Assembly (NCBI RefSeq): GCF_000518805.1
Contig: NZ_JAEH01000001.1
Span: 62,001-126,000 of the forward strand
From: Shewanella waksmanii ATCC BAA-643
GTDB taxonomy: Bacteria > Pseudomonadota > Gammaproteobacteria > Enterobacterales > Shewanellaceae
DNA length: 64,000 bases
Direction of reading: 5' to 3'
The notes under the pieces are model-generated. The model saw nothing but the letters and a program-made list of their open reading frames with translations. It ran no database searches and was not told the DNA's origin. A program made the translations under genes and the position numbers. The stretch's first letter is position 1. The number at the start of each line of letters is the position of its first letter. Shown here one piece after another: positions 36,713 to 50,446 of the stretch.

Positions 36713-39700
36713 TTATTCATCTAATGTCCCTATTAAACTGTTGAGCAGCTGCTCACCAGCATCAAAATCAAACTCGCTAACCTTAGCCAGTAGCTTAGTT
36801 AATGCTTGCTCCACCTCATCGCTCAATGGCTGTTCTAGCAGCAACTCCACAGAATCTGACACGGTTGAGTCAAAGTTATCAATCTGCTGCGCGATCAAAT
36901 TGAGCTGAGAGAGTAATTCAGTATGACTCAGCATAGCTTGTGGTGTCGATGAAGCGCGTGGTTGCTCCGGTGAGAATTGATGACTGATCTGCTCAACAAA
37001 TGGCGCAACCAAGGTTTCTGCACGATCGAAATCGTATTCTGCCAGCGCGGCTAATAATGCTTGCCCCGAGCTTAAATCGGCAACCCCAGAGAGCTGTTCT
37101 AACACAATCTCAAGTTGATCGACCGTAGTACTATCGAGCATGGCAATTTGCTCACTAATCTGCTCACAATGCTTTAGAAAATCAGCCAAGCTAATATTCA
37201 CAGTCCCTTGCGGGTTATCAGCCTGCGTTAAGGCAGTGTCAATGGTTGTTACCATCTGCGCAATTTTGCCACGGCAGTTCTCTAGCATGGGCGACAACAG
37301 CTCAATATCAACCGCTTGTTGTTGCTGCTTGTACTCAGTCAATTGCAGTTCTATCTGCTCTGCACTCTCAACAACAAACATAGCACCGACATTGGCGGCA
37401 ACCCCTTTCACGGTATGGATTGCAATGATCGCCGTAGCTAAATCCTCTTGCTCAATAGCCCGAGAAACTCTGTCGATGACATCAGCTTCAGATGCGGCAA
37501 CTTTGGCCAACGTGCGTCGATAAGCTTTTTGATTGCCTCCCATACGAGCCAACGCCGCTTCGGTATCAAATTCCGGTAATAGCAACGCTGCCTCAAGCTG
37601 CTCATCGGCTGGCTCTACCGTCAGTACTTGACCAGTCGGTCCCACCCATCGGGCAAGCGTCTTATACACTTCTTGCGGGTTAATCGGTTTAGGGATGTGA
37701 TCGTTCATGCCAGCTTCAATGCACTTTTCCCTATCGCCGCTCATCGCGTTTGCAGTCATTGCAATAATCGGCAGCGCCTGTTTATCACTAAGCTTGCGGA
37801 TCTGCCGTGTCGCTTCATAGCCATCCATCACCGGCATTTGAATGTCCATTAATATCGCATCACATTCATTGCTAGCGACCCAATCGACTGCTTGCTGCCC
37901 ATTGGATGCGACAGAAACCTGCAATCCGGCCATATTAAGCAGCTCCATGGCAATCTCTTGGTTGATATCATTGTCTTCCACCAGCAGGATATGCGCGCCG
38001 ACAATCTCTTGAGCGGCGGAAACATTTAACTTACCTTGCGCATTCTTAGGCTGAATAACACTGCTGCGGCCCATCACCGCCATTACCGTATCAAATAATG
38101 TCGACGCGCTCACCGGCTTGGTGAGTGCACTATCTAGCTGGACATCACCCGCTCTTTTAAGCATATCATCACGATCATACGCGGTGACTATGACCAATTT
38201 GGGTAACACTGATAGCGACAAGGATTGCTGAACGGTACGGCATAGCTCGACGCCATCCATCTGCGGCATTTTCCAGTCAGCTAATAGTAGCTGATAGGGC
38301 GTGCCCTGCTCGTCAGCTTGTTGTAGCTTGGCTATCGCTGCCTGGCCAGACTCCGCCACATCAGCTTTAAAGCCTAAGCTCTGCGATAAAGTATGTAAAA
38401 TTTCTCTAGCTGCGACGCTGTCATCCACAATCAAAATGGGCAAATTAAGTAAACTCTTAGCCGACGCAGGGCGTATAGTCGGTACGGCATCAGATACTGC
38501 AAACTTGGCAGTGAAGTAGAAGCGGCTGCCAACGCCAGATTCACTTTCAACCCAGATCTTGCCGGCCATCATCTCGGTGAGGGTTTTACAGATGGTCAAC
38601 CCCAACCCAGTACCGCCATACTTACGTGTGGTTGACGCATCCGCCTGACTGAATGACTGAAACAAACGCTTTTGTTGCTCAGGAGTCATGCCGATGCCGC
38701 TATCCTCAACGCAAAACTCAACCATGACTGAGTCGCTGTCTTGGTCGAGCAACTTAGCGCGTACAATAATTTCGCCCTGCTCGGTAAACTTGATAGAGTT
38801 ATTGGTTAGGTTAATGAGCACTTGGCCAAGGCGTAACGGGTCGCCCTCTAAATTTGTCGGAAGTTGCGGGTCAATATCAATCAGTAATTCCAAACCTTTT
38901 TGCTGGCTCTTATGCGAGATGAGCTCAACCAAACTATCGAAGCTTTCATTGAGGTTAAACTGGGTCACCTCTAACGACAACTTACCTGCCTCGATTTTAG
39001 AAAAGTCGAGAATATCGTTGATAATACCTAGTAGTGACTCAGCCGAGTTCTGAATTTTGTTAACGTAATCAGCTTGTTTACGATTAAGATTAGTTTGCTG
39101 GGTCAGATAACTCATGCCAATAATGGCATTCATTGGCGTGCGAATTTCATGGCTCATATTGGCTAAAAAGTCACTTTTCGCCTTAGTTGCCTCATCGGCA
39201 GTTCTAACCGCTTCTTCTAACTGACGGGCGTTTTCTTTCTCACTGGTAATGTCGATAAAGTTACCCACTAAACCTGCTGGGTTGTCTTGGCTGTCTTTAA
39301 AGCCCGTTACCCAATATAAAGTGTCATGCATTTTTCCGTCAGCAAACGGAATCTGCATCTCTTTCTTAATTGTAGTTTGATTAGCAATAACCTCGGTGTC
39401 TTCAGCCTGATATAACTCTCGGTCCTGCTCACTTAGGTAGGTCAAGTCAGTGACTTTCAGGCCAATCAGATCTTCAGCTTTCACGTTAAATGTCTGCTCA
39501 TAGGCTTTGTTAAAGCCTAAGTATCGCCCTTCAGCATTTTTGTAAAACAGCGGAATAGGCACCGTATCAATCAACAACTGCTGCAACTTCATCTGTTCAG
39601 CAAGAGAGCGCTTTGCAGCTTCGGCTTTTTCCATCGCAATCTTTAATGCTTCTTCAGCCTCTTTACGCTCTGTCGTATCGCGAACAATGCCAGTGAACAT

Positions 39701-42586
39701 CGGTACTTTATCGATTATCGCCTCACCCACTGCGACTTCGATTGTAATTTCTGTACCGTCTTTCTTAATCCCGGTTAGCTCATAAGTTGACTGTTCTTCA
39801 TCGCCTTTAGCCTGATCTTCAAGGTAATGGATATGAAAAGCGGGCGAAATTAATTGACTGATATTCCCCTGCGTCACTTCGTTCGCGCTATAGCCAAAAA
39901 TGCTCTCTGCCGCAGGGCTAAATTCTTCAATGATTCCCTGTTCATTAACAACAATGATGCCGTCAGATGCGTTATCAATAATGGTACGGGTTCGTTGCAT
40001 ACTGACTTGCAGCGCATCGGTTCGGGCCGCCACTAACTCTTCAAGTTTCAGCTGCGAACGAGTTAATGCCCGCGTCGCGCGGGTGCCCACTCTTAAAGTA
40101 AATAAGGTACTGCCTAACAGTAATGCTAGGGAGATTAACAATGTCGCCCAGACGGTATTTTTAAATACGGTAATTAACGAAAATGACTCAATGGCATCTA
40201 ATTCTGCTGCCAAGCCCATATTGAGTTTCTCATCCCAAAGCCAGCTGCCGACCACTTTGACACCCCGGTAATCATTGTAACCCTCAATATTTTGACCAGA
40301 CGCTTGGTTAGCAATACTGGCCGCCATCTCAGTCAACGGCCAGTTAGCATCAGCAGAGACTTTAGCACCACTATTAATGAGGTTGGTGCCTGGGTTAGCG
40401 ACACGAATATTCAGTGAGGCTTGCTGGTTTTCACCAATTAAGCCAACCTCCCTAAGCTGTGGCTCAAAGCGGACATTAGATAACAACAAACCGGTTTTAT
40501 CTACGGCGTAGGTTTCACCACTATGGCCGATGAAACCAGCCGAAAGTATCGATGAAAACACACCGTTAAAGTTGACTCGCTTAGTGAGGATTGCGATCAC
40601 TTGATTGTCTGCATTAACCACTGGGGCGGCAAAAAACATCGTAGACGGCATATCATCAACACCGCTAGCGCTTGCAGAGAACATCACATCTGAGCGGATA
40701 GGCGGAATAAACACACTCTCGCCACGCAACACTTGTGCAAGTAATTCAGGCCTTTGCTGCGCTATCAAGTTGAGACTGCCAATATTGGAATCTCGGCGCG
40801 ATGACAAACTGATGCTATCTGGGGCGATAACAAAAAAACCAAATGAGCCGGACTCCCCTTCACGGTCTCGAAAGAACTTACGCACTTGCGATTGGATTGG
40901 CGCTTCTTTTAACGACGCCGTATTTCGTGGAACAACCAATAGTTGCTCAACTAAACCGGCAAGTTGTTTGTTCTTACCCACCTGTTGCAGGTGGTTCAAT
41001 TCATACTCTACCCAATACAGCAGGCGCTGGTGCGTCGAGTTAAGCAGAGTTTGTAAATTGTACTCCACCTCGCTGCGATGTTTTTGCTCTGCACCATCGA
41101 TGATCATCGCAATAACACTGAGTAAAACTACAGATAAAAAGGTCAAGCCGATAAATATGGTGCGCTTAAAGCTTGCCGAACCAAACTTGCTTACCAACTC
41201 TTTATCAGATGCTTTGAGAATTCTGGAACTGACCAAAGTGGCTAAGATTAATAGGCCAACCACCGCCAAAATAATGGTATATAGAGAATCAATTAACTTG
41301 GGCTCGTTGCTGCTAACCTCTGCTTGATTAGACTCTAGCCAATCATTACGGGTAAGCATCAAGTCTCTGAGTTTTAACGAATCTAGCGCTTTTTGAACAA
41401 TAGAGTGGAGTAAAGGGTGTTGATTGTGGCTCAGCAGGTGGACAGAAGTCGGTGGAAACACATCTTGGTTAATTGCGCGCAGCTTGTTGGGTTGATTCCG
41501 TTGATTCATGGTGTGCTGTATCGCTAACTGCGAATCAAGTAAACCATCTACTTCGCCAGCCAGAACTCTATCTATTGAATCGTCCATTCCGGTAGTTTCA
41601 ACAATAGTAATATCGGGATATAACACCCGTAATTTATCGATAGAGGTATAACCTTGCGGAACGGCTATCTTGGCCTTAGCCATATCAGCAAGGCTATTAA
41701 GCTGATCATTGGTATTGCTGACATGGAACAACTCGCGCACCAAAAAATAGGGCGTAGTAAACTTGCCGTAAGCTTTGCGCTCTTCTTCCATATAGGCATC
41801 TGGAAGTAAATCAATTTTTCCTTGCTTGAACGCCGCGAGATTGTCGTCCCAATCACCTTCAACAATCTCTATTTGTAATCCCGTTGCTAAGACAATTTTA
41901 TTGACAATAGCACCAGCTAGCCCACCAATTGTGCCATCTTCATGCATAAATAACATTGGCGGCCAATGATCAATACCGACACGAATGCGGTTGTCACTGA
42001 TCCATTGCTGCTCTTCGGGTGTCAGTGAGATCAGTGTGTCGACTGCCATTGAGCTGTCAGGCTGAGCTGTGGCGCGTAACTTTAGGTTGTCGGCATAACT
42101 CATCAGCTGGGTTAAATAATCGCTCTTAAGCTGATGATATTCATCGCTGTTTATGATTTCCATGGCAAGCTTACGATCGCCACTATCGATGGCAGTAAGG
42201 GTTTTTAGCTCTAGTTCGACTAAGCGCTGGTTGGTTAGCTCAAGCAAAGCTATCAGCTGATTGTCATTTGCGTGTTGCCTAGCCAACAACCGGTTAATTA
42301 ACTCGGCCAGTTTAGGTTCATATTCGTTGTAGCGATTTAACCATTTCTCATCACCTGAAAACGCATAACTTAGCACTGAAGAGGTAAGGATTTCGTCTAA
42401 GTACTTCAGTTCAGTGGTGAGCTGATTAACTTCAGCCACACTTAACTGCTGTTGGTAGGCTTGCGGGGCAGTAGGGACTTGCGCATGACTGGTGAACGAC
42501 ATTGTCGTCAACAACAATAAAAAAAACGATAGATAACGACGAATTACTTTGCCGCTAAAGCCAGCCTTAATCCTAACTGTAGACAT
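36713..42586 (-). CDS. Giant hybrid sensor kinase (SBP-sensor-PAS-PAS-HK-REC-REC-HPt)
   Basis: 1957 residues. Signal/first helix at about 15-35. A periplasmic SBP_bac_3-like domain follows (about 190-425; [31 protein letters not shown]). Helices lie near 435-460 and 475-498; a second extracytoplasmic sensor resembling dCache spans about 505-800, with a helix near 810-835. Two PAS domains lie at about 860-1120 (second: [16 protein letters not shown]). HisKA has [10 protein letters not shown] with His1146, then HATPase, two receivers ([23 protein letters not shown]) and HPt with [11 protein letters not shown] (His1724). The C-terminus holds a tandem repeat. This BarA/EvgS-like relay has a binding-protein input of unknown ligand. 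The downstream REC-HD-GYP gene is its likely target. Confidence 0.93.
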
Positions 42587-43223: not shown

Positions 43224-44099
43224 TTATTTAGCGGGTAATGCCTGAACACCGTCGATGACAAATTGCATCGCGGGATTAATAATGCGATTAGATTGCCAGA
43301 TAAGATCGCTATTCCAGCGCGCAAAGACTTCATTCGTGGCCATCAGATACTTGACCTCCCCCGCATCAGCCGCGCTTTGGCAAACAAAGCGCGGTAAATG
43401 GCCCCACCCAGTGCCAGCCTTAATCAAATTCAGTAACTGGGGCGCATTGTTACATTGCAGCACGCGATGGCTGATAATATCACTGTCTCGCATACCCACG
43501 TCTTCTAAAAACGTTAGGGATAACTGCAGTTTATCTAACAATGCCCGAGGCAAATGCTGTGACTCAATCTGCCAGCTAACTGGAATAACTCGCACCACTT
43601 CAAAAGAATAACCATTGCTGGTCATCAAATCTGCACCAGTCGACAGCGTAGAAAACAACAAGCCTATGTCAGCTTTACCCGATAACACCCAACCTTTAAC
43701 TTGCAGTGTATCGCCATTGAGCACTTTCAAAGACAGGAAGGGAAAAGCCAGCAGTAGCTCAGCCAGTAACTCATCCAGTGCCGGTTCCACTAAACTCATA
43801 TCAATCGCAATGGTTAATTTATCTGGTACGCCTTGCAGTAAGCTATCAACTTTAGCATCGAATAAACTCGATTCCTTCAACATCGCTTGCGCATAGGTGT
43901 AGAGTTGCAGCCCCTGCTCTGTCACCTGTAAAGAACGCGGCAGCCGAGTAAATAATGTTAAGCCGGTATCGATCTCTAATGTGTTAATTTGCTCACGCAA
44001 TGTCGATACATGCTTGCCAATGCTGCGCGCAGCCTGAGCCACGCCGCCTTGTTCAACAACGGCCACAAAGGCATGTAATTGCTCTAATGATACAGCCAC
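43224..44099 (-). CDS. LysR-family regulator of the first amidase module
   Basis: About 291 residues from a GTG at 44099 that has GGAG seven bases upstream; an ATG at 44138 would add 13 basic residues. The HTH is LHAFVAVVEQGGVAQAARSIGKHVSTL, unusual for the GKH at the recognition helix, shared with the LysR at 48312-49181. It is divergent from the choloylglycine-hydrolase-type gene at 44320, and an imperfect T-N11-A inverted repeat lies between them. By position it regulates that gene. The effector may be the substrate or product of the amidase (inference). Confidence 0.85.
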   Translation of the reverse strand: MAVSLEQLHAFVAVVEQGGVAQAARSIGKHVSTLREQINTLEIDTGLTLFTRLPRSLQVTEQGLQLYTYAQAMLKESSLFDAKVDSLLQGVPDKLTIAIDMSLVEPALDELLAELLLAFPFLSLKVLNGDTLQVKGWVLSGKADIGLLFSTLSTGADLMTSNGYSFEVVRVIPVSWQIESQHLPRALLDKLQLSLTFLEDVGMRDSDIISHRVLQCNNAPQLLNLIKAGTGWGHLPRFVCQSAADAGEVKYLMATNEVFARWNSDLIWQSNRIINPAMQFVIDGVQALPAK

Positions 44100-44165
44100 T
44101 TCCTTGCTCCATTTCTTTAGAAATAACCGGGTACCCATAACAAGACGCCAATAGATTCACGCACT

Positions 44166-44190
44166 CGTATATGGATTGCTAGCATACACG
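44166..44190. promoter_or_regulatory. LysR-type T-N11-A operator candidate
   Basis: CGTATAT (44166-44172) and ATACACG (44184-44190) are inverted with one mismatch and an 11-nt spacer bounded by T and A, the classical LysR box. It lies between the divergent LysR and amidase genes. Confidence 0.5.
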
Positions 44191-44319
44191 TTAAGAGGGG
44201 TTTTACCTAGTCTCAGCCACTTTGAGAATAGAGTTTTAGCGTCATAATGCAACCAACAAAGCAAAACCAACAACTCAGCTATTTTGCTTTATTCATATCA
44301 TTATCGACGAGGTCTTATT

Positions 44320-45384
44320 ATGAAAAACGCTAACTTGAAGAAAATCTCCGCACTAGTTATTGCCCTCGCTTCAGTCGCTGGACTATCACAGGCTCAAGCA
44401 TGTTCTCGTATCACCTTAGATACTCCGCACGGGGTTTCTACAGTGCGTTCACTAGACTGGGGGACACAGTTAGGCAATATCAGTCAGGTGAATCCTGTCG
44501 GTATCGAACGCAGCACGCAGGCACCTAGCTATAAGCGCGCAATGCAGTGGACCACCAAATACCATTCCATTGCTCAAATGGAATGGGATGTGTTTCACGG
44601 CGTCGCATCTGATGCGATTAACTCACAGGGCTTAGGCACTTCATTATTGTACATGGCTGACTCAGCCCCCTACATTAAGGACTATAAAGACAATGGCGCC
44701 CCGGCCGTCAGCTTCCTTGACTTAGTCTCATACATCAATGAAACCTATGCCAATGTCGACGAAGTCGTCAACGCCTTTGAGGCCAACGAGTTCCAAGTGG
44801 CCTGGGCCGACGGATTACACGGCGTACAACATGGTTTGCATTTCTCTGTACATGACAGGTCTGGCGACATTGCACTGTTCCAGCTAAATGAAGGTGGCAA
44901 AGTCGTCGTGCATCGTGGCGATGTACAATCAGATATGCGTGTGATGGCTAATGCGCCTTTGCAACAACACCACCGCGAATATGTTAATCAGGTCGACTTG
45001 AACAATTTAGAAGCCAAGTCAGTACCTTCGTCAATCTCATCGCTAGACAGAAACTTACGCGGCCTGTTCAATACCAGTCACGTTAAATTTGATGGCAACA
45101 AAAGTTGGGCGCAAACTCGTGGCAAGCTGCTAAGCACCTATAATGCAGGTAACTTGGTACCGCAAGACCTGATTGACCCAGTCAATGGCGAAACGTATGC
45201 CACTTGGACTCAGTTTGTTTACAACCATCAAAATGGTGACTTCTTGCTGACCGATTATGATACTCGCATGCAAATTGGCTATAACTTTAATGACACCTTG
45301 TCATTTACCGAAACACGCTGCGCCAATACGCTTGAACAAGCTAACGCAGGCGAAACACAGGTCACTTGGGGGACTTGTAAGTAA
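44320..45384 (+). CDS. Exported choloylglycine-hydrolase-type linear amide hydrolase
   Basis: 354 residues from the ATG at 44320 (the frame is open from 44284). The signal peptide (MKNANLKKISALVIAL...) ends SQAQA|C, so Cys28 becomes the N-terminal nucleophile after cleavage, as in Ntn hydrolases of the C59 type. Other family residues: RSLDW (Arg and Asp), AINSQGL (Asn) and MANAPLQQHH. Relatives hydrolyse penicillin V, conjugated bile salts or acyl-homoserine lactones. The substrate here is unknown. It is periplasmic and divergent from its probable LysR regulator. Confidence 0.88.
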   Translation: MKNANLKKISALVIALASVAGLSQAQACSRITLDTPHGVSTVRSLDWGTQLGNISQVNPVGIERSTQAPSYKRAMQWTTKYHSIAQMEWDVFHGVASDAINSQGLGTSLLYMADSAPYIKDYKDNGAPAVSFLDLVSYINETYANVDEVVNAFEANEFQVAWADGLHGVQHGLHFSVHDRSGDIALFQLNEGGKVVVHRGDVQSDMRVMANAPLQQHHREYVNQVDLNNLEAKSVPSSISSLDRNLRGLFNTSHVKFDGNKSWAQTRGKLLSTYNAGNLVPQDLIDPVNGETYATWTQFVYNHQNGDFLLTDYDTRMQIGYNFNDTLSFTETRCANTLEQANAGETQVTWGTCK

Positions 45385-45446: not shown

Positions 45447-46520
45447 CTAGCTAGCCTGATTGTAGCTAATATGCTGATGGAAGCGCACAATCAAATCTTG
45501 ACGAGACTTGTCCAATTCCAATTGCGCAGTAAAGCGCTTTAACGCTTCTTCGACATTGTTCATAAAGCGGCCGTAACCCGCATCTTTACTGTCTTTTTCG
45601 CCTGCCACTATGGTAAAGCTCACCATTTCAACTAACCTTTCAGCATCCCAGTGACGAATAAACTGCTGCTCTTCAATGTTAGGATCGAAACCTAACATCT
45701 GCACTTCATCGGTACCATCAACTTGGTCGTACTTACTGTTACGCACCAATGGGGTTAATCCATTGGCCACCATAGCAATACGCTTAAGTTGCTTCGATGC
45801 TGCCGCATCGACAAAACTCTGTTCCAGCTTTTGGTAGAGCGGTGCAAAATCTTCAGTATTGGCAGGCAAAATAGCCTGCTTTAGCATACGGCTCAGCGGC
45901 AGTTTAACGGTTACATAGCAAATTGAACCATGACCTTCAGGTAACGGACAGTTACGTGCTTTATAGCGACGATCGATAGCGCGAAGCTTGTAGGCGTGGG
46001 TTTCTTTATTACCTTTGGATTTAGCAAACAAATCGTAGGACAGATGCTGATGATCACGCACTTTCAAAACCAAATTCTGCTCGGGTAATTGCGGCATAAG
46101 TTTGGCTACAAAATCTTGTACTTTGGCATGGAAAGTGGCCGAGTTACTGCGAATGTCATTACCGGTAGCTAAGAACACAATGCGAATTTTACGGGCACGG
46201 TAATCATCTTGGCTATGCAGTGTTTGCGACTCATGATATTCAGGGTTGTAGAAAAAGATGATCTGCTCGGCCGTTGGGAAACAGTAGGCTTCAGTGTGAA
46301 AACGCACCACCGGAAGTTTATCATTGGTGATGACATGCAAATTACGAATTTCTTCTTGATCTGCTAGCGCAAAAATAGCTTGGCTCAGTGTTTGGTAACA
46401 CGTTTTGTAATCAGGATAGTGCGCTAATAAAGCATCCGTTACTTTAATTTCTGCAGTAATGTACTGATTGCTGCGAACGTCCTTGGGTATGTACACTTTT
46501 TGCTGATGGCTAAGGGACAT
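45447..46520 (-). CDS. DUF3083-like protein
   Basis: 357 residues from the ATG at 46520, which has AAGGAG five bases upstream; the frame runs 37 codons further up without a site. A cytoplasmic protein with no signal peptide. I recall this size and these segments (KVYIPKDVRSNQYITAEI; IIFFYNPEYHESQTLHS; NCPLPEGHGSICYVTVKLPL; WDAERLVEMVSFTIVAGEKD) as DUF3083, a family of Shewanella, Vibrio and relatives with no known function. It is Arg/Lys- and Tyr-rich, with three Cys. It lies between the two amidase modules and is transcribed alone, away from the SYLF-like lipoprotein gene. Confidence 0.65.
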   Translation of the reverse strand: MSLSHQQKVYIPKDVRSNQYITAEIKVTDALLAHYPDYKTCYQTLSQAIFALADQEEIRNLHVITNDKLPVVRFHTEAYCFPTAEQIIFFYNPEYHESQTLHSQDDYRARKIRIVFLATGNDIRSNSATFHAKVQDFVAKLMPQLPEQNLVLKVRDHQHLSYDLFAKSKGNKETHAYKLRAIDRRYKARNCPLPEGHGSICYVTVKLPLSRMLKQAILPANTEDFAPLYQKLEQSFVDAAASKQLKRIAMVANGLTPLVRNSKYDQVDGTDEVQMLGFDPNIEEQQFIRHWDAERLVEMVSFTIVAGEKDSKDAGYGRFMNNVEEALKRFTAQLELDKSRQDLIVRFHQHISYNQAS

Positions 46521-46710
46521 AGATACTCCTTGTGATAAGTTAACCATATGTAGCCTGGTGCAGATGATAACGATAAAATCTGACAAAAATGCTGCGGTGG
46601 CACACACTTTTTTACCTGCTGACAACATCATAAGGGCTGAATATGATTTATTACTTAAAAAATAACCATGAGTGAATACTTTTCAAGCACAAAGGGGCTA
46701 AACAACATCC

Positions 46711-48201
46711 CTAAAAACGATAATTTAGCGCTGATACAAACTGGTGTTTGTCACTGCCTTTTTGTCCATACTCCATCGACAATGACCAAGTGCGATTGAA
46801 ATTATAGTTGGCACCAGCGATGAATGACCACTTATCGATATTTTCCTGGCGAATTTTGTAATCAATGTACTCTGCGGCCCCATCACCAGGCAGCGGAATT
46901 TCGTGCTGGCCAATAATGGTCAGATCACTGTCTAAATAACTGGCACCAACATAAACATCGACACTTTGATCTAAATAGGTTGCTATCTGCTTACCCACCC
47001 GCGGTGAGATATTCACCACCAGCTCTTCCGCCTTAGCATTTTTCATATCAATGTAGCTAAATGAAATGGGAACAGTCACAAAGTAGTCGCGCCAACCGGC
47101 AGCTAAAATCGTCCCTACCGTGTAATTATATCCATCAAGATCAACATCTAATGGTACATAGAGTGAATTATCTTTGAGCGCATCGTAGACTTTTTGACAG
47201 ACAGGCTTAGGTGGAAAGCCTGAACAGTCTAGCCCGATTTGGTCTATCAAGTCGTTGCCGTCGAGTTCAAACTCAATATGCGCCATACCATTGACTTTAC
47301 CTATACTGGCAAACACGTTCATAAAGGGAAATAACCACGCATCAAGCTTTAACTGCGGCGACTCAGAGTGCGAGTAATTATTATCGAAAGTGACAAACTT
47401 CATCGGCACGCGGCCTTTATCCCAAAAACTAAAACCAGCTTCCAGCTCATCTATGGTCATAGCTTGCTTAGTCTCAGCATATATCAAGCTCACCCCATAT
47501 GGTTTGGGCAAGGTATATCCTTTATCAATCACATCTTGGGCGAAAAATGGCAACGCTCGATTCCATTTCGCTGGCGCAGTTCTTTCAATTTCTTGCTCTT
47601 TATTGGCAACCCGTGCATCGCCAAGGCCAGTGTCGGTCAATGAATGATTTACTGATATGGTTTGTAATTGCAGGCTACCAACAAGGTTAGTATCGGACTC
47701 ATAATACACATAGGTAGGGTAATCGCTGTTTTCACCGATAAAATAGTGATTCAATACATCACTGCTACCATCGCTCCAATTAGATTCTTTGGCGAAAGCA
47801 CCACGGTAACCACCATTAGCAAACTGCTCTAAGCTCGCTTTTGACTCAAATATCGTTACTGTTTGATAGTTGCCATACGCTAGGCCTGCGCCTAAATCAT
47901 ATCGATTTACATCAATGTAAATAACCGAACCATCCTGATTATTGTATATGGCGCCTATCCCGCTTCCGCCGCCAATTAAAGGCACCTTTAGCCGAGACAT
48001 GAAAACGGTTGCATATCCGTAGGAATGAGTCACTTTTTCGCTAAGATTGGGATAAGTGCGACCGAGATTATCAATTAGCTGCTGGGATTGCTGATCGATT
48101 GAGCGAGTGACTGCATCTCTTTGGTCAATGGGAACGCTAGTACTGCAAGCAGTTAATAGCAGGGCTGCGCAGCTCGTGAGCAACTGAAAAAGTTTATTCA
48201 T
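46711..48201 (-). CDS. Lipoprotein with SYLF-like domain and probable outer-membrane barrel
   Basis: 496 residues. Lipobox LLTAC (Cys19) after a short signal. Residues about 50-130 resemble the SYLF (Ysc84/BPSL1445) domain: a GYATVFMSRLKVPLIGGGSG start, IGAIYNNQDGSVIYIDV, DLGAGLAYGNYQTVTIFES and LEQFANGGY. From about 235 on the pattern is alternating amphipathic strands, ending NFNRTWSLSMEYGQKG and the final ALNYRF with C-terminal Phe, as in outer-membrane barrels. SYLF domains bind lipids in eukaryotes; the bacterial ones are exported and poorly known. A lipidated SYLF part joined to a barrel is unusual to my knowledge. It sits between the two amidase modules. Confidence 0.72.
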   Translation of the reverse strand: MNKLFQLLTSCAALLLTACSTSVPIDQRDAVTRSIDQQSQQLIDNLGRTYPNLSEKVTHSYGYATVFMSRLKVPLIGGGSGIGAIYNNQDGSVIYIDVNRYDLGAGLAYGNYQTVTIFESKASLEQFANGGYRGAFAKESNWSDGSSDVLNHYFIGENSDYPTYVYYESDTNLVGSLQLQTISVNHSLTDTGLGDARVANKEQEIERTAPAKWNRALPFFAQDVIDKGYTLPKPYGVSLIYAETKQAMTIDELEAGFSFWDKGRVPMKFVTFDNNYSHSESPQLKLDAWLFPFMNVFASIGKVNGMAHIEFELDGNDLIDQIGLDCSGFPPKPVCQKVYDALKDNSLYVPLDVDLDGYNYTVGTILAAGWRDYFVTVPISFSYIDMKNAKAEELVVNISPRVGKQIATYLDQSVDVYVGASYLDSDLTIIGQHEIPLPGDGAAEYIDYKIRQENIDKWSFIAGANYNFNRTWSLSMEYGQKGSDKHQFVSALNYRF

Positions 48202-48311
48202 TGTATCCCCAAAGAATCAGACAACCGCCTAGATTACAAATAATAAACAAATAGTTAACCGCCAGCAACCAACTAGGGGAAAGCGTGTTTAGCGATTGTG
48301 CCATTGTCAGC

Positions 48312-49181
48312 TTAGAACCACTGTTCAATACCCTGCTGGAAAAATCGGTGCACCTCATTTTCAGGCTGGGTTTTCGGCCATATCAAGTCATATTGTAGCT
48401 GCATTTTGGTCTTGAGAAACTCCGGCTGCAATACGGTTATCGTCGAAGGCATCTGCCCACCTACAGACCCCAACATGGCCCAACCCACACCAGATTCAAC
48501 AAGCTGCATCATATTGCTATAACCATTGGCAAAACAGACTGTAGGTGACATTTTGATCACTTGATATAAGGCTTGTTGGTCCGTCAATGATTGACTAAGG
48601 ATCTGAGTATGCGCCATAAGTTCATCATTACTTACCTGGCGCTTACGTGCTAAAGGGTGGCTTTTTGCGCACACCAGCAGTATGTTCAAATGACCGATAG
48701 CTTGGAACTCATAAAACTGACTGTTGCCCTCAACTGTCGGTGTCAGAGCAAGATCCACTTTGCCTTGCCTCACCGCTGCAAAAATATCATCCACCCCCTT
48801 ACTGAAAACAGAAAAACGGATATAAGGCCATTGCTGCTGCGCTTTACTTACTAATTTGGCAATGGGCTCAAACGCCATATTCTCATCGATGACAATCGTG
48901 AAACTTGCAGGCAAACCCAGCGACAACTGACTGGCGTTTCGGCTAAAGCGCTCAACGCTATCGACCACCACTTTCGCGCCGTCATATAAATTTAAACCCG
49001 CCTCTGTCAACTGCGGGTATTTACCATCTCGGTCGAACAACAACACCCCCAATTCATCCTCTAGACGGGCGATGTTACCGCTAACGGTCGCGAGATGCTT
49101 GCCTACTCGTTTACCCGCGGCCGTAAACGATCCGGTATCTGCCGCGGCAATAAAACATTGCAGTAAGTCAGGCTTGATCAT
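48312..49181 (-). CDS. LysR-family regulator of the second amidase module
   Basis: 289 residues. HTH LLQCFIAAADTGSFTAAGKRVGKHLATVSGNIARL with the same GKH recognition-helix element as the regulator at 43224-44099, then LGVLLFDRDGKYPQLTEAG. The effector domain follows. It is divergent from the C45-type amidase gene with 122 bp between the starts, and a perfect TATCTA/TAGATA inverted repeat lies there. The two regulators look like paralogues serving analogous modules. Confidence 0.88.
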   Translation of the reverse strand: MIKPDLLQCFIAAADTGSFTAAGKRVGKHLATVSGNIARLEDELGVLLFDRDGKYPQLTEAGLNLYDGAKVVVDSVERFSRNASQLSLGLPASFTIVIDENMAFEPIAKLVSKAQQQWPYIRFSVFSKGVDDIFAAVRQGKVDLALTPTVEGNSQFYEFQAIGHLNILLVCAKSHPLARKRQVSNDELMAHTQILSQSLTDQQALYQVIKMSPTVCFANGYSNMMQLVESGVGWAMLGSVGGQMPSTITVLQPEFLKTKMQLQYDLIWPKTQPENEVHRFFQQGIEQWF

Positions 49182-49239
49182 TTTAGTTCATCTCCTTCAG
49201 GCAACCCTATGAAAAAACCATAGCAAACCTATTAAATGA

Positions 49240-49259
49240 TATCTAAAAAATTATAGATA
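49240..49259. promoter_or_regulatory. LysR-type operator candidate
   Basis: TATCTA (49240-49245) and TAGATA (49254-49259) form a perfect inverted repeat with an 8-nt spacer, in the divergent region between the LysR and C45 amidase genes. Confidence 0.5.
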
Positions 49260-49303
49260 ATGAACTCGAACACAACAACTACCAATTGATTTGAGGTCAC
49301 ACC

Positions 49304-50446
49304 ATGAAAAAAACTATCCTAGCTCTCACCACAATGGCACTACTTTCTTCAGCTGCTATGGCGCAATCTGTACCAGGCGATAAACTGGACTACTACAACC
49401 CTCAACGTGCAGCCCACCAACTAGGCGCCAACGTTGTCGACTACTCAGGCGACAAACAGCCACAGCTGGCTGGCTACTTAGCAACATTACACCGCTTAAC
49501 CCCTGAACCCATCGTGATTGAGATTGCTCAAAATGCGGTTAATAACAACCGTGCAATCGCACCAAAGTATGCAGAATTAATGGAGCAACAAGCACAAATA
49601 AAGGGTGTTCCTGTTCACGAGCTTTACGCAGCAATTGCCCAGGCTGACTGGAACATCAACAAGCCTTTTATCGCCGCGGATGATGATTTGGCATTGCTGC
49701 AGTCGGCGGCAGAGTCCATGAATGGTTGCACCACTCTGGCTTTTGCCGACTCTGGAATCGTTGGCCAGAACAACGATATGAACATTGATAACCTCATGGC
49801 TGCAGAAACCACAGTCATAAAAACTGATGATAGGATTTTTATTGCTACAGACGGCGGCCACTTTCAAGGCATGGGTAAGCATGTCGGCGCAGTATTAAAC
49901 TTCATGGGCGAGCCGAGTGCGCCATCAGCCACTGCCGATACACCTAATGTTGTCACACCCGATGCGGTATTTGCTGCTATCACCAGCTCAAAAAGCGTTG
50001 AGGAGGCTTACAGCAAGCTGAAAGGCTATACCACCCCAGTTGCGATTAACTTTACCGTCGCCGATGACAGTGGTGATCACGGTGCAATAGAGATGACCAC
50101 ACAAGGTACAAAGCTCATCAGAGGAGAATCCGGTATTGGTCGTGCAAACCACACCCGTGAAATGCGTACAGCCTTTTTAGCGGACAAGACTCTGCTTGAA
50201 GCAAACCAAGTATTTGCCGATACCTTTGCGCGTGAAGATAGCGCCAATAACTTTATTAACTTCGCCAAAGAGCGCGACGTAGCGGGCATGCAGTATATCT
50301 TGGAGCAAAAGCCAATCAACATTACTAAGTATGATTCTGACTTCGTTACGGTTGAGTCCATGGTATTTGATACTAAAGCCGGTTGTGCCTATGTGTCGGG
50401 CGATAACCCTAAATTTGGTCAATATACTCAGGTATGTTTCGAGTAA
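49304..50446 (+). CDS. Exported C45-type acyltransferase/amidase
   Basis: 380 residues. Signal peptide 1-20 (ending AMA|QS). The family is that of isopenicillin-N acyltransferase (peptidase family C45): autoproteolysis at Gly-Cys to free an N-terminal Cys, here NG|CTTLAF with Cys142, followed by GQNNDMN (typical GxNxD) and later GESGIGRANHTREM, which fits the family's GI.RANH motif. So a proenzyme of about 120 mature residues is cut from a larger chain. It is periplasmic or secreted. The substrate is unknown; linear amides, beta-lactam side chains and N-acyl signals are known for relatives. It is divergent from its LysR gene. Confidence 0.85.
   Translation: MKKTILALTTMALLSSAAMAQSVPGDKLDYYNPQRAAHQLGANVVDYSGDKQPQLAGYLATLHRLTPEPIVIEIAQNAVNNNRAIAPKYAELMEQQAQIKGVPVHELYAAIAQADWNINKPFIAADDDLALLQSAAESMNGCTTLAFADSGIVGQNNDMNIDNLMAAETTVIKTDDRIFIATDGGHFQGMGKHVGAVLNFMGEPSAPSATADTPNVVTPDAVFAAITSSKSVEEAYSKLKGYTTPVAINFTVADDSGDHGAIEMTTQGTKLIRGESGIGRANHTREMRTAFLADKTLLEANQVFADTFAREDSANNFINFAKERDVAGMQYILEQKPINITKYDSDFVTVESMVFDTKAGCAYVSGDNPKFGQYTQVCFE

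What the first reader, a model, noticed from the sequence alone, without database searches (positions are those of the whole stretch)
46711..48201. A lipidated SYLF-like domain joined to a probable outer-membrane barrel
The N-terminal part reads as a SYLF (Ysc84-type) domain behind a lipobox, and the rest looks like a barrel ending in Phe. SYLF proteins are usually small and free-standing in bacteria. The fusion could place a lipid-binding domain on an outer-membrane protein. I am not aware of a description of this architecture.
Basis: partly seen in the sequence, partly recalled or inferred. Interest (0 to 1): 0.6.

Follow-up and report, generated by a model that had tools for sequence, protein, structure and literature searches.

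The report
Lipid-anchored SYLF domain on outer-membrane barrel
A bacterial gene joins a membrane-anchored lipid-binding-type domain to a probable outer-membrane barrel in one protein; the same join recurs in eleven genomes, and its barrel relatives often sit beside lipid-cutting enzymes, which hints at an unstudied way of handling lipids at the outer membrane.

Summary
Window 46711-48201 (-) encodes 496 aa: lipobox (Cys19, Ser at +2), a SYLF domain (about 23-192) and a C-terminal module (206-496) ending in Phe. An HMM of 23 standalone SYLF relatives finds residues 6-134 (E 2.5e-19); a profile of ten fusions finds the solved SYLF proteins BefA (6.4e-11) and BPSL1445 (2.8e-5); an HMM of 20 SYLF-less barrel relatives finds residues 205-496 (4.5e-58). 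The barrel fold is supported (sub-threshold OMP_b-brl hits, beta alternation, aromatic C-terminus) but not shown: both AlphaFold runs failed (pLDDT 33). Eleven full-length fusions were found in eleven genomes; their SYLF halves form one clade (100/99). Of 46 SYLF-less barrel relatives examined, 28 lie in tight gene runs with an Omp85-like protein, a DUF4056 lipoprotein and/or lipid-type hydrolases; one fusion (L145) has the Omp85-like and hydrolase genes beside it, the other ten do not. Best reading: the periplasmic lipid-binding subunit of an outer-membrane lipid-remodelling set. The papers I could search describe no such architecture. Novelty: new variant of a known kind.

The parts
46711..48201 (-). 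Whole gene of the SYLF-barrel fusion, 496 aa plus stop
   Evidence: ORF; 10 full-length relatives of 29-58% identity
48148..48201 (-). Signal peptide, residues 1-18, ending in LTA
   Evidence: Read from sequence; no signal-peptide program was run
48145..48147 (-). Cys19, predicted lipidated residue; Ser at +2
   Evidence: Cys and Ser invariant in 10 of 10 rows of A1; L145 has Cys-Thr; lipidation itself not tested
47626..48135 (-). SYLF domain, about residues 23-192
   Evidence: A1 profile positions 23-192 match BefA 7rfq, 6.4e-11; HMM of 23 standalone SYLF relatives aligns residues 6-134, 2.5e-19
47587..47625 (-). Linker, about residues 193-205
   Evidence: Between the two domain matches
46714..47586 (-). 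C-terminal probable beta-barrel module, residues 206-496
   Evidence: HMM of 20 SYLF-less family members aligns 205-496, 4.5e-58; sub-threshold OMP_b-brl; beta alternation
47494..47565 (-). Family signature before the barrel, residues 213-236 (WxRxLPFxxQxVxDxGxxLPxPxG)
   Evidence: Invariant columns in A1; P218, G228 and P232 also invariant across 26 barrel rows
47197..47226 (-). Conserved cysteine pair, residues 326 and 335, possible disulphide in a loop
   Evidence: Both invariant in 10 of 10 aligned fusions; the bond is inference
46714..46725 (-). C-terminal NYRF, beta-signal-like end
   Evidence: Last residue F or Y in 11 of 11 fusions

Best explanation
A single-chain outer-membrane protein: the N-terminus is lipidated and held in the inner leaflet of the outer membrane, the SYLF domain lies in the periplasm against that leaflet and binds phospholipid, and the C-terminal module is a beta-barrel in the outer membrane. 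I propose that it is the lipid-binding or lipid-presenting subunit of an outer-membrane lipid-remodelling set whose other members are an Omp85-like barrel and lipid-acting hydrolases, working somewhat as MlaA with OmpC does but in one chain. Shown: the two homologous modules, the lipobox, conservation of the fusion, the gene partners of the barrel family. Inferred: localisation, barrel closure, lipid binding by this SYLF, and the remodelling role.
For: SYLF homology to BefA and BPSL1445; a review calls BPSL1445 a lipid/phosphoinositide-binding SYLF protein (PMC10787603, passages). Cys-Ser after the lipobox in 10 of 10 aligned fusions. Barrel family membership. Of 46 SYLF-less barrel-family genes at 44 chosen loci, 28 lie in a same-strand run (gaps under 150 bases) with at least one of six partner clusters: Omp85-like 24, DUF4056 23, alpha/beta hydrolase 11, patatin 2, PLD 1, carboxylesterase 1 (with L145 added 29 of 47 and 25; families by Pfam on one representative each). 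The fusion in L145 is followed 2 bases later by an Omp85-like gene (PF01103, 3.7e-8) and then an alpha/beta hydrolase gene (4.6e-29). DUF4056 is placed in the Lipocone superfamily, members of which are predicted to act on lipids (PMC12419801, passages and section 21). The window's genome holds four proteins of the Omp85-like cluster, three of them in stretches without a family barrel, so an unlinked partner is possible.
Against: Only 1 of 11 fusion loci has the Omp85-like and hydrolase partners; HMMs of the six partner clusters found nothing near the other 10, the window included (64 kb for the window, 18-19 kb for eight loci, 5.9 kb for L034). 18 of the 46 SYLF-less barrels also lack a partner in a tight run. 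No residue of a lipid site was tested. AlphaFold failed. No solved structure matches the barrel half. A profile comparison with another small neighbouring family taken for an OMP found nothing. What the Lipocone paper predicts for DUF4056 itself I did not see; the outer-membrane section concerns other Lipocone families.
Confidence: 0.4

Rival explanations
1. The barrel serves as a translocator or display platform and carries the SYLF domain to the cell surface, where it perturbs membranes of other cells as BefA does.
For: BefA, the best-scoring solved homologue, is called membrane-disrupting (PMC11796346, passages, citing Hill 2022, which is not held).
Against: Lipid anchor, SYLF, barrel in that order with Ser at +2 suggests retention on the periplasmic side (rule recalled, not tested); the linker is only about 13 residues by the domain limits used.
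Confidence: 0.15
2. The barrel is a porin or channel for amphipathic compounds such as acyl amides or fatty acids, and SYLF is a periplasmic receptor or plug; neighbouring acyl-amide hydrolases process what enters.
For: Window neighbours are a choloylglycine-hydrolase-family protein and a C45/AAT-type protein, each beside a LysR gene; a Vibrio plasmid cluster with a barrel relative also holds a linear amide C-N hydrolase.
Against: None of the window's neighbours (36-60 kb, ORFs of 90 aa or more) clusters with genes of the nine other fusion loci compared.
Confidence: 0.2
3. The barrel and the Omp85-like protein form an export or assembly device for lipoprotein hydrolases, and SYLF was fused as one such cargo or as an adaptor.
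For: Barrel genes lie next to hydrolase genes, several with lipobox-like starts by reading, and an Omp85-like gene.
Against: In L145 the hydrolase is present together with the SYLF fusion, so SYLF did not replace it there; the other 10 fusions have neither partner near.
Confidence: 0.2
4. Chance similarity, or a frameshift or assembly artefact.
For: Pfam alone does not recognise SYLF in this protein and scores the barrel below its cut-off.
Against: 11 full-length members in 11 genomes; E-values with held-out HMMs and shuffle controls.
Confidence: 0.02

Closest known systems
Bacterial SYLF proteins (Pfam Ysc84, PF04366), including BPSL1445 (PDB 7OFN)
   Same: Same domain, often behind a lipobox-like start by reading; 22 of 24 rows of A2 match Pfam Ysc84 at E up to 0.1, best 1.2e-9
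   Different: The 23 standalone rows are about 183-221 aa and have no barrel
BefA (PDB 7RFQ)
   Same: Homologous SYLF domain
   Different: Described as secreted, with SYLF in its C-terminal part; no barrel mentioned in the passages read (PMC5154760)
Unnamed barrel family often beside Omp85-like, DUF4056 and alpha/beta hydrolase genes
   Same: The C-terminal half is a member
   Different: 36 of the 47 barrels examined are 275-388 aa without SYLF; ten have another N-terminal part, the one scanned without a Pfam match
Lipocone proteins fused to or encoded with OMP barrels (YfiM-Griddle, YfiM-DUF2279; PMC12419801, section 21)
   Same: A lipid-acting domain coupled to an outer-membrane barrel, with patatin-like neighbours
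   Different: Lipocone is a predicted enzyme domain of another fold; the word SYLF does not occur in the main text
MlaA-OmpC
   Same: Lipoprotein plus outer-membrane barrel in lipid handling (MlaA as a lipoprotein is recalled; papers seen as search listing with abstract starts only)
   Different: Two proteins; homology to the present protein was not tested

Membership tests
SYLF / Ysc84 (PF04366) | Match to the Pfam model above its cut-off | tested here: not met
   No match for the window protein at E up to 1; 3 of 10 fusions match weakly, best 0.0022
SYLF / Ysc84 (PF04366) | Sequence homology to proteins whose SYLF fold is solved | tested here: met
   7rfq 6.4e-11 and 7ofn 2.8e-5 with the fusion profile
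SYLF / Ysc84 (PF04366) | Homology to proteins that do match Ysc84 | tested here: met
   HMM of 23 standalone relatives, 2.5e-19; 22 of the 24 rows of A2, the window row not among them, match Ysc84 at E up to 0.1
SYLF / Ysc84 (PF04366) | Lipid binding | not testable with these tools
   Needs purified protein
Bacterial lipoprotein | Signal peptide and lipobox Cys | tested here: met
   LTAC at residues 16-19 by reading; Cys invariant in 10 of 10; 3 of 11 fusions deviate from the strict pattern at one position; no prediction program was run
Outer-membrane beta-barrel | Pfam OMP barrel match above cut-off | tested here: not met
   OMP_b-brl 17.6 bits against a cut-off of 28.7
Outer-membrane beta-barrel | Alternating hydrophobicity and aromatic C-terminus | tested here: met
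   4 of 2000 shuffles reach the alternation; F or Y end in 11 of 11; a cruder count was not significant, 66 of 500
Outer-membrane beta-barrel | Closed barrel in a structure model | tested here: inconclusive
   Mean pLDDT 33 in both runs
Barrel family beside Omp85-like and DUF4056 genes | Sequence membership | tested here: met
   4.5e-58 with an HMM of 20 SYLF-less members
Barrel family beside Omp85-like and DUF4056 genes | Omp85-like or DUF4056 gene adjacent | tested here: not met
   Absent from the window; Omp85-like present in 1 of 11 fusion loci, DUF4056 in 0 of 11

The most novel reading that the evidence does not exclude
The SYLF-barrel fusion is the core of an undescribed outer-membrane phospholipid-handling machine, in which a periplasmic SYLF domain feeds lipid between the inner leaflet and a barrel, with a small Omp85-like barrel and a lipase or lipocone enzyme as partners. 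It would give a bacterial SYLF domain a defined role in the envelope.
Probability: 0.15. Interest if true: 0.75.

Novelty: new variant of a known kind. Interest (0 to 1): 0.48.

Why it matters
SYLF domains have been described in organisms of all kingdoms, with little known of their function beyond possible lipid binding (as the 2016 BefA paper put it, PMC5154760, passage). A natural fusion to an outer-membrane-type module would tie the domain to one membrane and gives a tractable test. The barrel family's repeated company of an Omp85-like protein, a Lipocone-superfamily protein and lipid-type hydrolases points to an uncharacterised outer-membrane lipid system that also occurs on plasmids typed as conjugative.

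Tried and rejected
Three scans of viral contigs for relatives found none. A count of amphipathic windows did not exceed shuffles (SYLF half 8 windows, reached by 71 of 500; barrel half 14, reached by 66 of 500); an autocorrelation measure, tried after that, did for the barrel half. A profile comparison of the barrel family with a neighbouring small family taken for an OMP gave nothing. No PDB relative of the barrel at E up to 10.

Search for other SYLF architectures with the Pfam Ysc84 model in 321 class genomes: 105 have a match. This model misses the window's own fusion, so it would miss others like it. Five of the listed frames exceed 550 aa; the one I opened (L171, 657-aa frame) looks like an over-long frame around a SYLF protein of ordinary size; I did not open the others, and the list is cut.

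The idea that SYLF genes usually neighbour Omp85-like genes was rejected: apart from one pair in the window's own genome (L184, L192), none of 54 SYLF-bearing loci among 58 scanned (some are the same place fetched twice), and none of 19 further loci (18 with a SYLF HMM hit), has one in the about 1.5 kb held on each side. The flanking acyl-amide hydrolases as fixed partners were rejected, since the other fusion loci compared lack them in shared clusters.

Limits. The 23 standalone SYLF rows were found by searching with this protein or its N-half, so the HMM test is not blind; the PDB hits do not depend on them. The barrel HMM's 20 rows were likewise found with this protein and include 5 barrels trimmed from another N-terminal part. 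The 45 neighbourhoods were picked by me from hit lists (20, 20 mostly, three plasmid records of the 20, two of the own genome), not at random; L145 is one of them. L068 was left out of both trees as a near copy of L064; SYLF candidates of 300 aa or more were left out of the SYLF tree.

Full report
OBSERVATION. The gene is one open frame at 46711-48201 (-), 496 aa. It begins with a signal-peptide-like stretch and lipobox (LTAC, Ser at +2) and ends in NYRF. A DUF3083 gene starts 79 bases downstream and a LysR gene ends 110 bases upstream, all on the same strand. G+C of the two halves is alike (0.439 and 0.434; window 0.452), so nothing marks a recent join. The consensus scan of 46400-48700 found no terminator-like site and no excess of promoter-like sites (6 found, mean 5.7 in shuffles).

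N-TERMINAL HALF. Pfam does not recognise SYLF in this protein at E up to 1. Three other lines do. phmmer against solved structures gives a single hit at E up to 10, BefA (7rfq, E 8.8e-4, residues 50-134). A profile of the 10 fusions gives two hits at E up to 1, BefA (6.4e-11, positions 23-192) and the lipoprotein 7ofn (2.8e-5); 7OFN is named as a Burkholderia SYLF protein in PMC10787603 (passages read). An HMM of 23 standalone relatives, with the window row left out, finds all 10 fusions given to it at 2.3e-18 or better (window 2.5e-19), while the best of 200 shuffled copies reaches 2.9. These standalone proteins are SYLF proteins in their own right: 22 of the 24 rows of A2 match Pfam Ysc84 at E up to 0.1 (best 1.2e-9) and the window row does not; the A2 profile finds 7rfq at 1.5e-36 and 7ofn at 6.1e-18 (A2 includes the window row).

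C-TERMINAL HALF. It belongs to a family of proteins of about 275-390 aa without SYLF (lengths), which begin with signal-peptide-like stretches by reading. An HMM of 20 SYLF-less members finds residues 205-496 at 4.5e-58. The barrel fold is supported, not proven: OMP_b-brl below the cut-off for the window protein, in 5 of 10 fusions and 12 of 26 barrel rows, both at E up to 1; alternation of hydrophobic positions for 206-496 reached by 4 and 2 of 2000 shuffles on two scales, with no such signal in the SYLF half (576 and 414 of 2000); an aromatic last residue in 11 of 11 fusions. Against: a simpler strand count was not significant, no solved relative, a null profile comparison with another small family, and two AlphaFold runs with pLDDT 33.

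DISTRIBUTION. Eleven full-length fusions were found: the window's; Paraferrimonas haliotis (L034, 58% identical); eight more in 394 genomes of the order (where 9 of 394 including the window's have a frame of 494-536 aa and 103 of 394 have any match to the N-half); and one in another family of the class (L100/L145, 29%). At E 1e-12 only the window's own among 369 class genomes, and three of 398 phylum genomes (own, G043, G942), showed full-length matches; these samples overlap with those of the order. In a tree of SYLF halves all 10 fusion rows used lie on one side of a 100/99 branch against 50 standalone rows, 46 of them different. In a tree of 56 barrel rows nine fusions form a 98/97 clade; the tenth, L145, joins them only together with two SYLF-less barrels from G115 (97/92, order unresolved), so the label needs two changes; it needs one in 21% of bootstrap trees. 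One fusion event with one later loss, or a misplaced long branch, fits both trees; both outputs warn of long branches. L068 was left out of the trees.

GENE NEIGHBOURHOODS. The ten fusion loci compared share few neighbours. The window shares none. In one genus (five loci) several genes are shared, among them a gene upstream in 5 of 5 whose L066 copy is DUF2141 (5e-26). Outside it the only shared cluster is one 343-385-aa protein in L034 and L062, at different distances. The wider barrel family is different. In 45 loci that I chose (L145 among them) an Omp85-like cluster occurs in 27, DUF4056 in 23, an alpha/beta hydrolase in 11, PLD in 7, carboxylesterase in 6 and patatin in 5 (names by Pfam on one representative each). 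Of the 47 barrel genes there, 29 are in a tight same-strand run with at least one of these, 25 with the Omp85-like gene; without L145, 28 of 46 and 24. The Omp85-like proteins of the cluster are 367-438 aa, shorter than BamA or TamA (recalled); absence of POTRA domains was not tested. In L145 the order is SYLF-barrel, Omp85-like gene 2 bases on, then an alpha/beta hydrolase gene. Ten barrels carry a different N-terminal part, a separate group in the tree (92/65), without Pfam match in the one scanned; their loci hold a PLD gene in 7 of 10 and a carboxylesterase gene in 6 of 10.

MECHANISM. From anatomy: Ser at +2 predicts an outer-membrane inner-leaflet anchor (Lol sorting rule, recalled), so the SYLF domain would be held in the periplasm between lipid anchor and barrel. 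SYLF protein BPSL1445 is described as lipid/phosphoinositide-binding (PMC10787603, passages) and BefA as membrane-disrupting (PMC11796346, passages). DUF4056 is a CapCone family of the Lipocone superfamily; the authors predict for other, outer-membrane Lipocone families action on lipid head groups, and describe these fused to or encoded with OMP barrels (PMC12419801, passages and section 21). I therefore propose a lipid-presenting subunit of an outer-membrane lipid-remodelling set. The weak point is that 10 of 11 fusions, the window's included, have no such partner nearby. The window's genome does hold a complete SYLF-less set (barrel, hydrolase, DUF4056, Omp85-like; L072) and three more proteins of the Omp85-like cluster elsewhere, one of them directly beside a standalone Ysc84 gene.

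COMPARISON AND NOVELTY. The protein has a SYLF domain and a member of the barrel family by sequence; it fails Pfam's own thresholds for both, so the names rest on the other tests. Searches of open-licence PMC for SYLF or Ysc84 with barrel or outer-membrane words returned four listings, three different papers; another SYLF paper on Shewanella came up. I read the passages with the word in all four: a review of the Brucella envelope, two proteomic tables that list a SYLF or Ysc84 protein, and a transposon insertion next to a SYLF gene in Shewanella sp. ANA-3. None of these passages describes a SYLF-barrel fusion. Subscription papers and preprints were not searchable.

Noticed in passing
window 43224-45384 and 48312-50446: Two pairs, each a LysR gene divergent from a gene for a choloylglycine-hydrolase-family protein (PF02275, 3.2e-12) or an AAT/C45-type protein (PF03417, 4.6e-6), flank the finding.
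   Followed up: partly
L184 6604-8606 (own genome, contig C4): An Omp85-like gene (386 aa) overlaps the longest frame of a standalone Ysc84 gene on the same strand; the pairing was not seen at the other SYLF loci scanned.
   Followed up: partly
L075 4794-8096 (E. coli plasmid p12A2, typed conjugative): Barrel relative, Omp85-like gene and DUF4056 gene in a row with IS66-type genes on both sides; 11 Escherichia plasmid records hold a barrel relative.
   Followed up: partly
L071 1605-7239 (own genome): A 606-aa protein with an unrecognised N-terminal part fused to the same barrel, in a row with carboxylesterase and PLD genes; ten such barrels form a group.
   Followed up: partly
L076 540-10526 (Vibrio alfacsensis plasmid pYa108): A barrel relative lies in a cluster annotated with amidohydrolase, autotransporter assembly (TamA-like), patatin, TRIC channel, BamA/TamA-family and linear amide C-N hydrolase genes.
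   Followed up: no
phage records OR851737 and OR845327 (hits H21, H22): Short unannotated records labelled as Salmonella and Escherichia phages hold a barrel relative; perhaps host DNA.
   Followed up: no
window 36713-42586: A very large (1957 aa) frame that reads as a hybrid sensor histidine kinase; by reading only.
   Followed up: no
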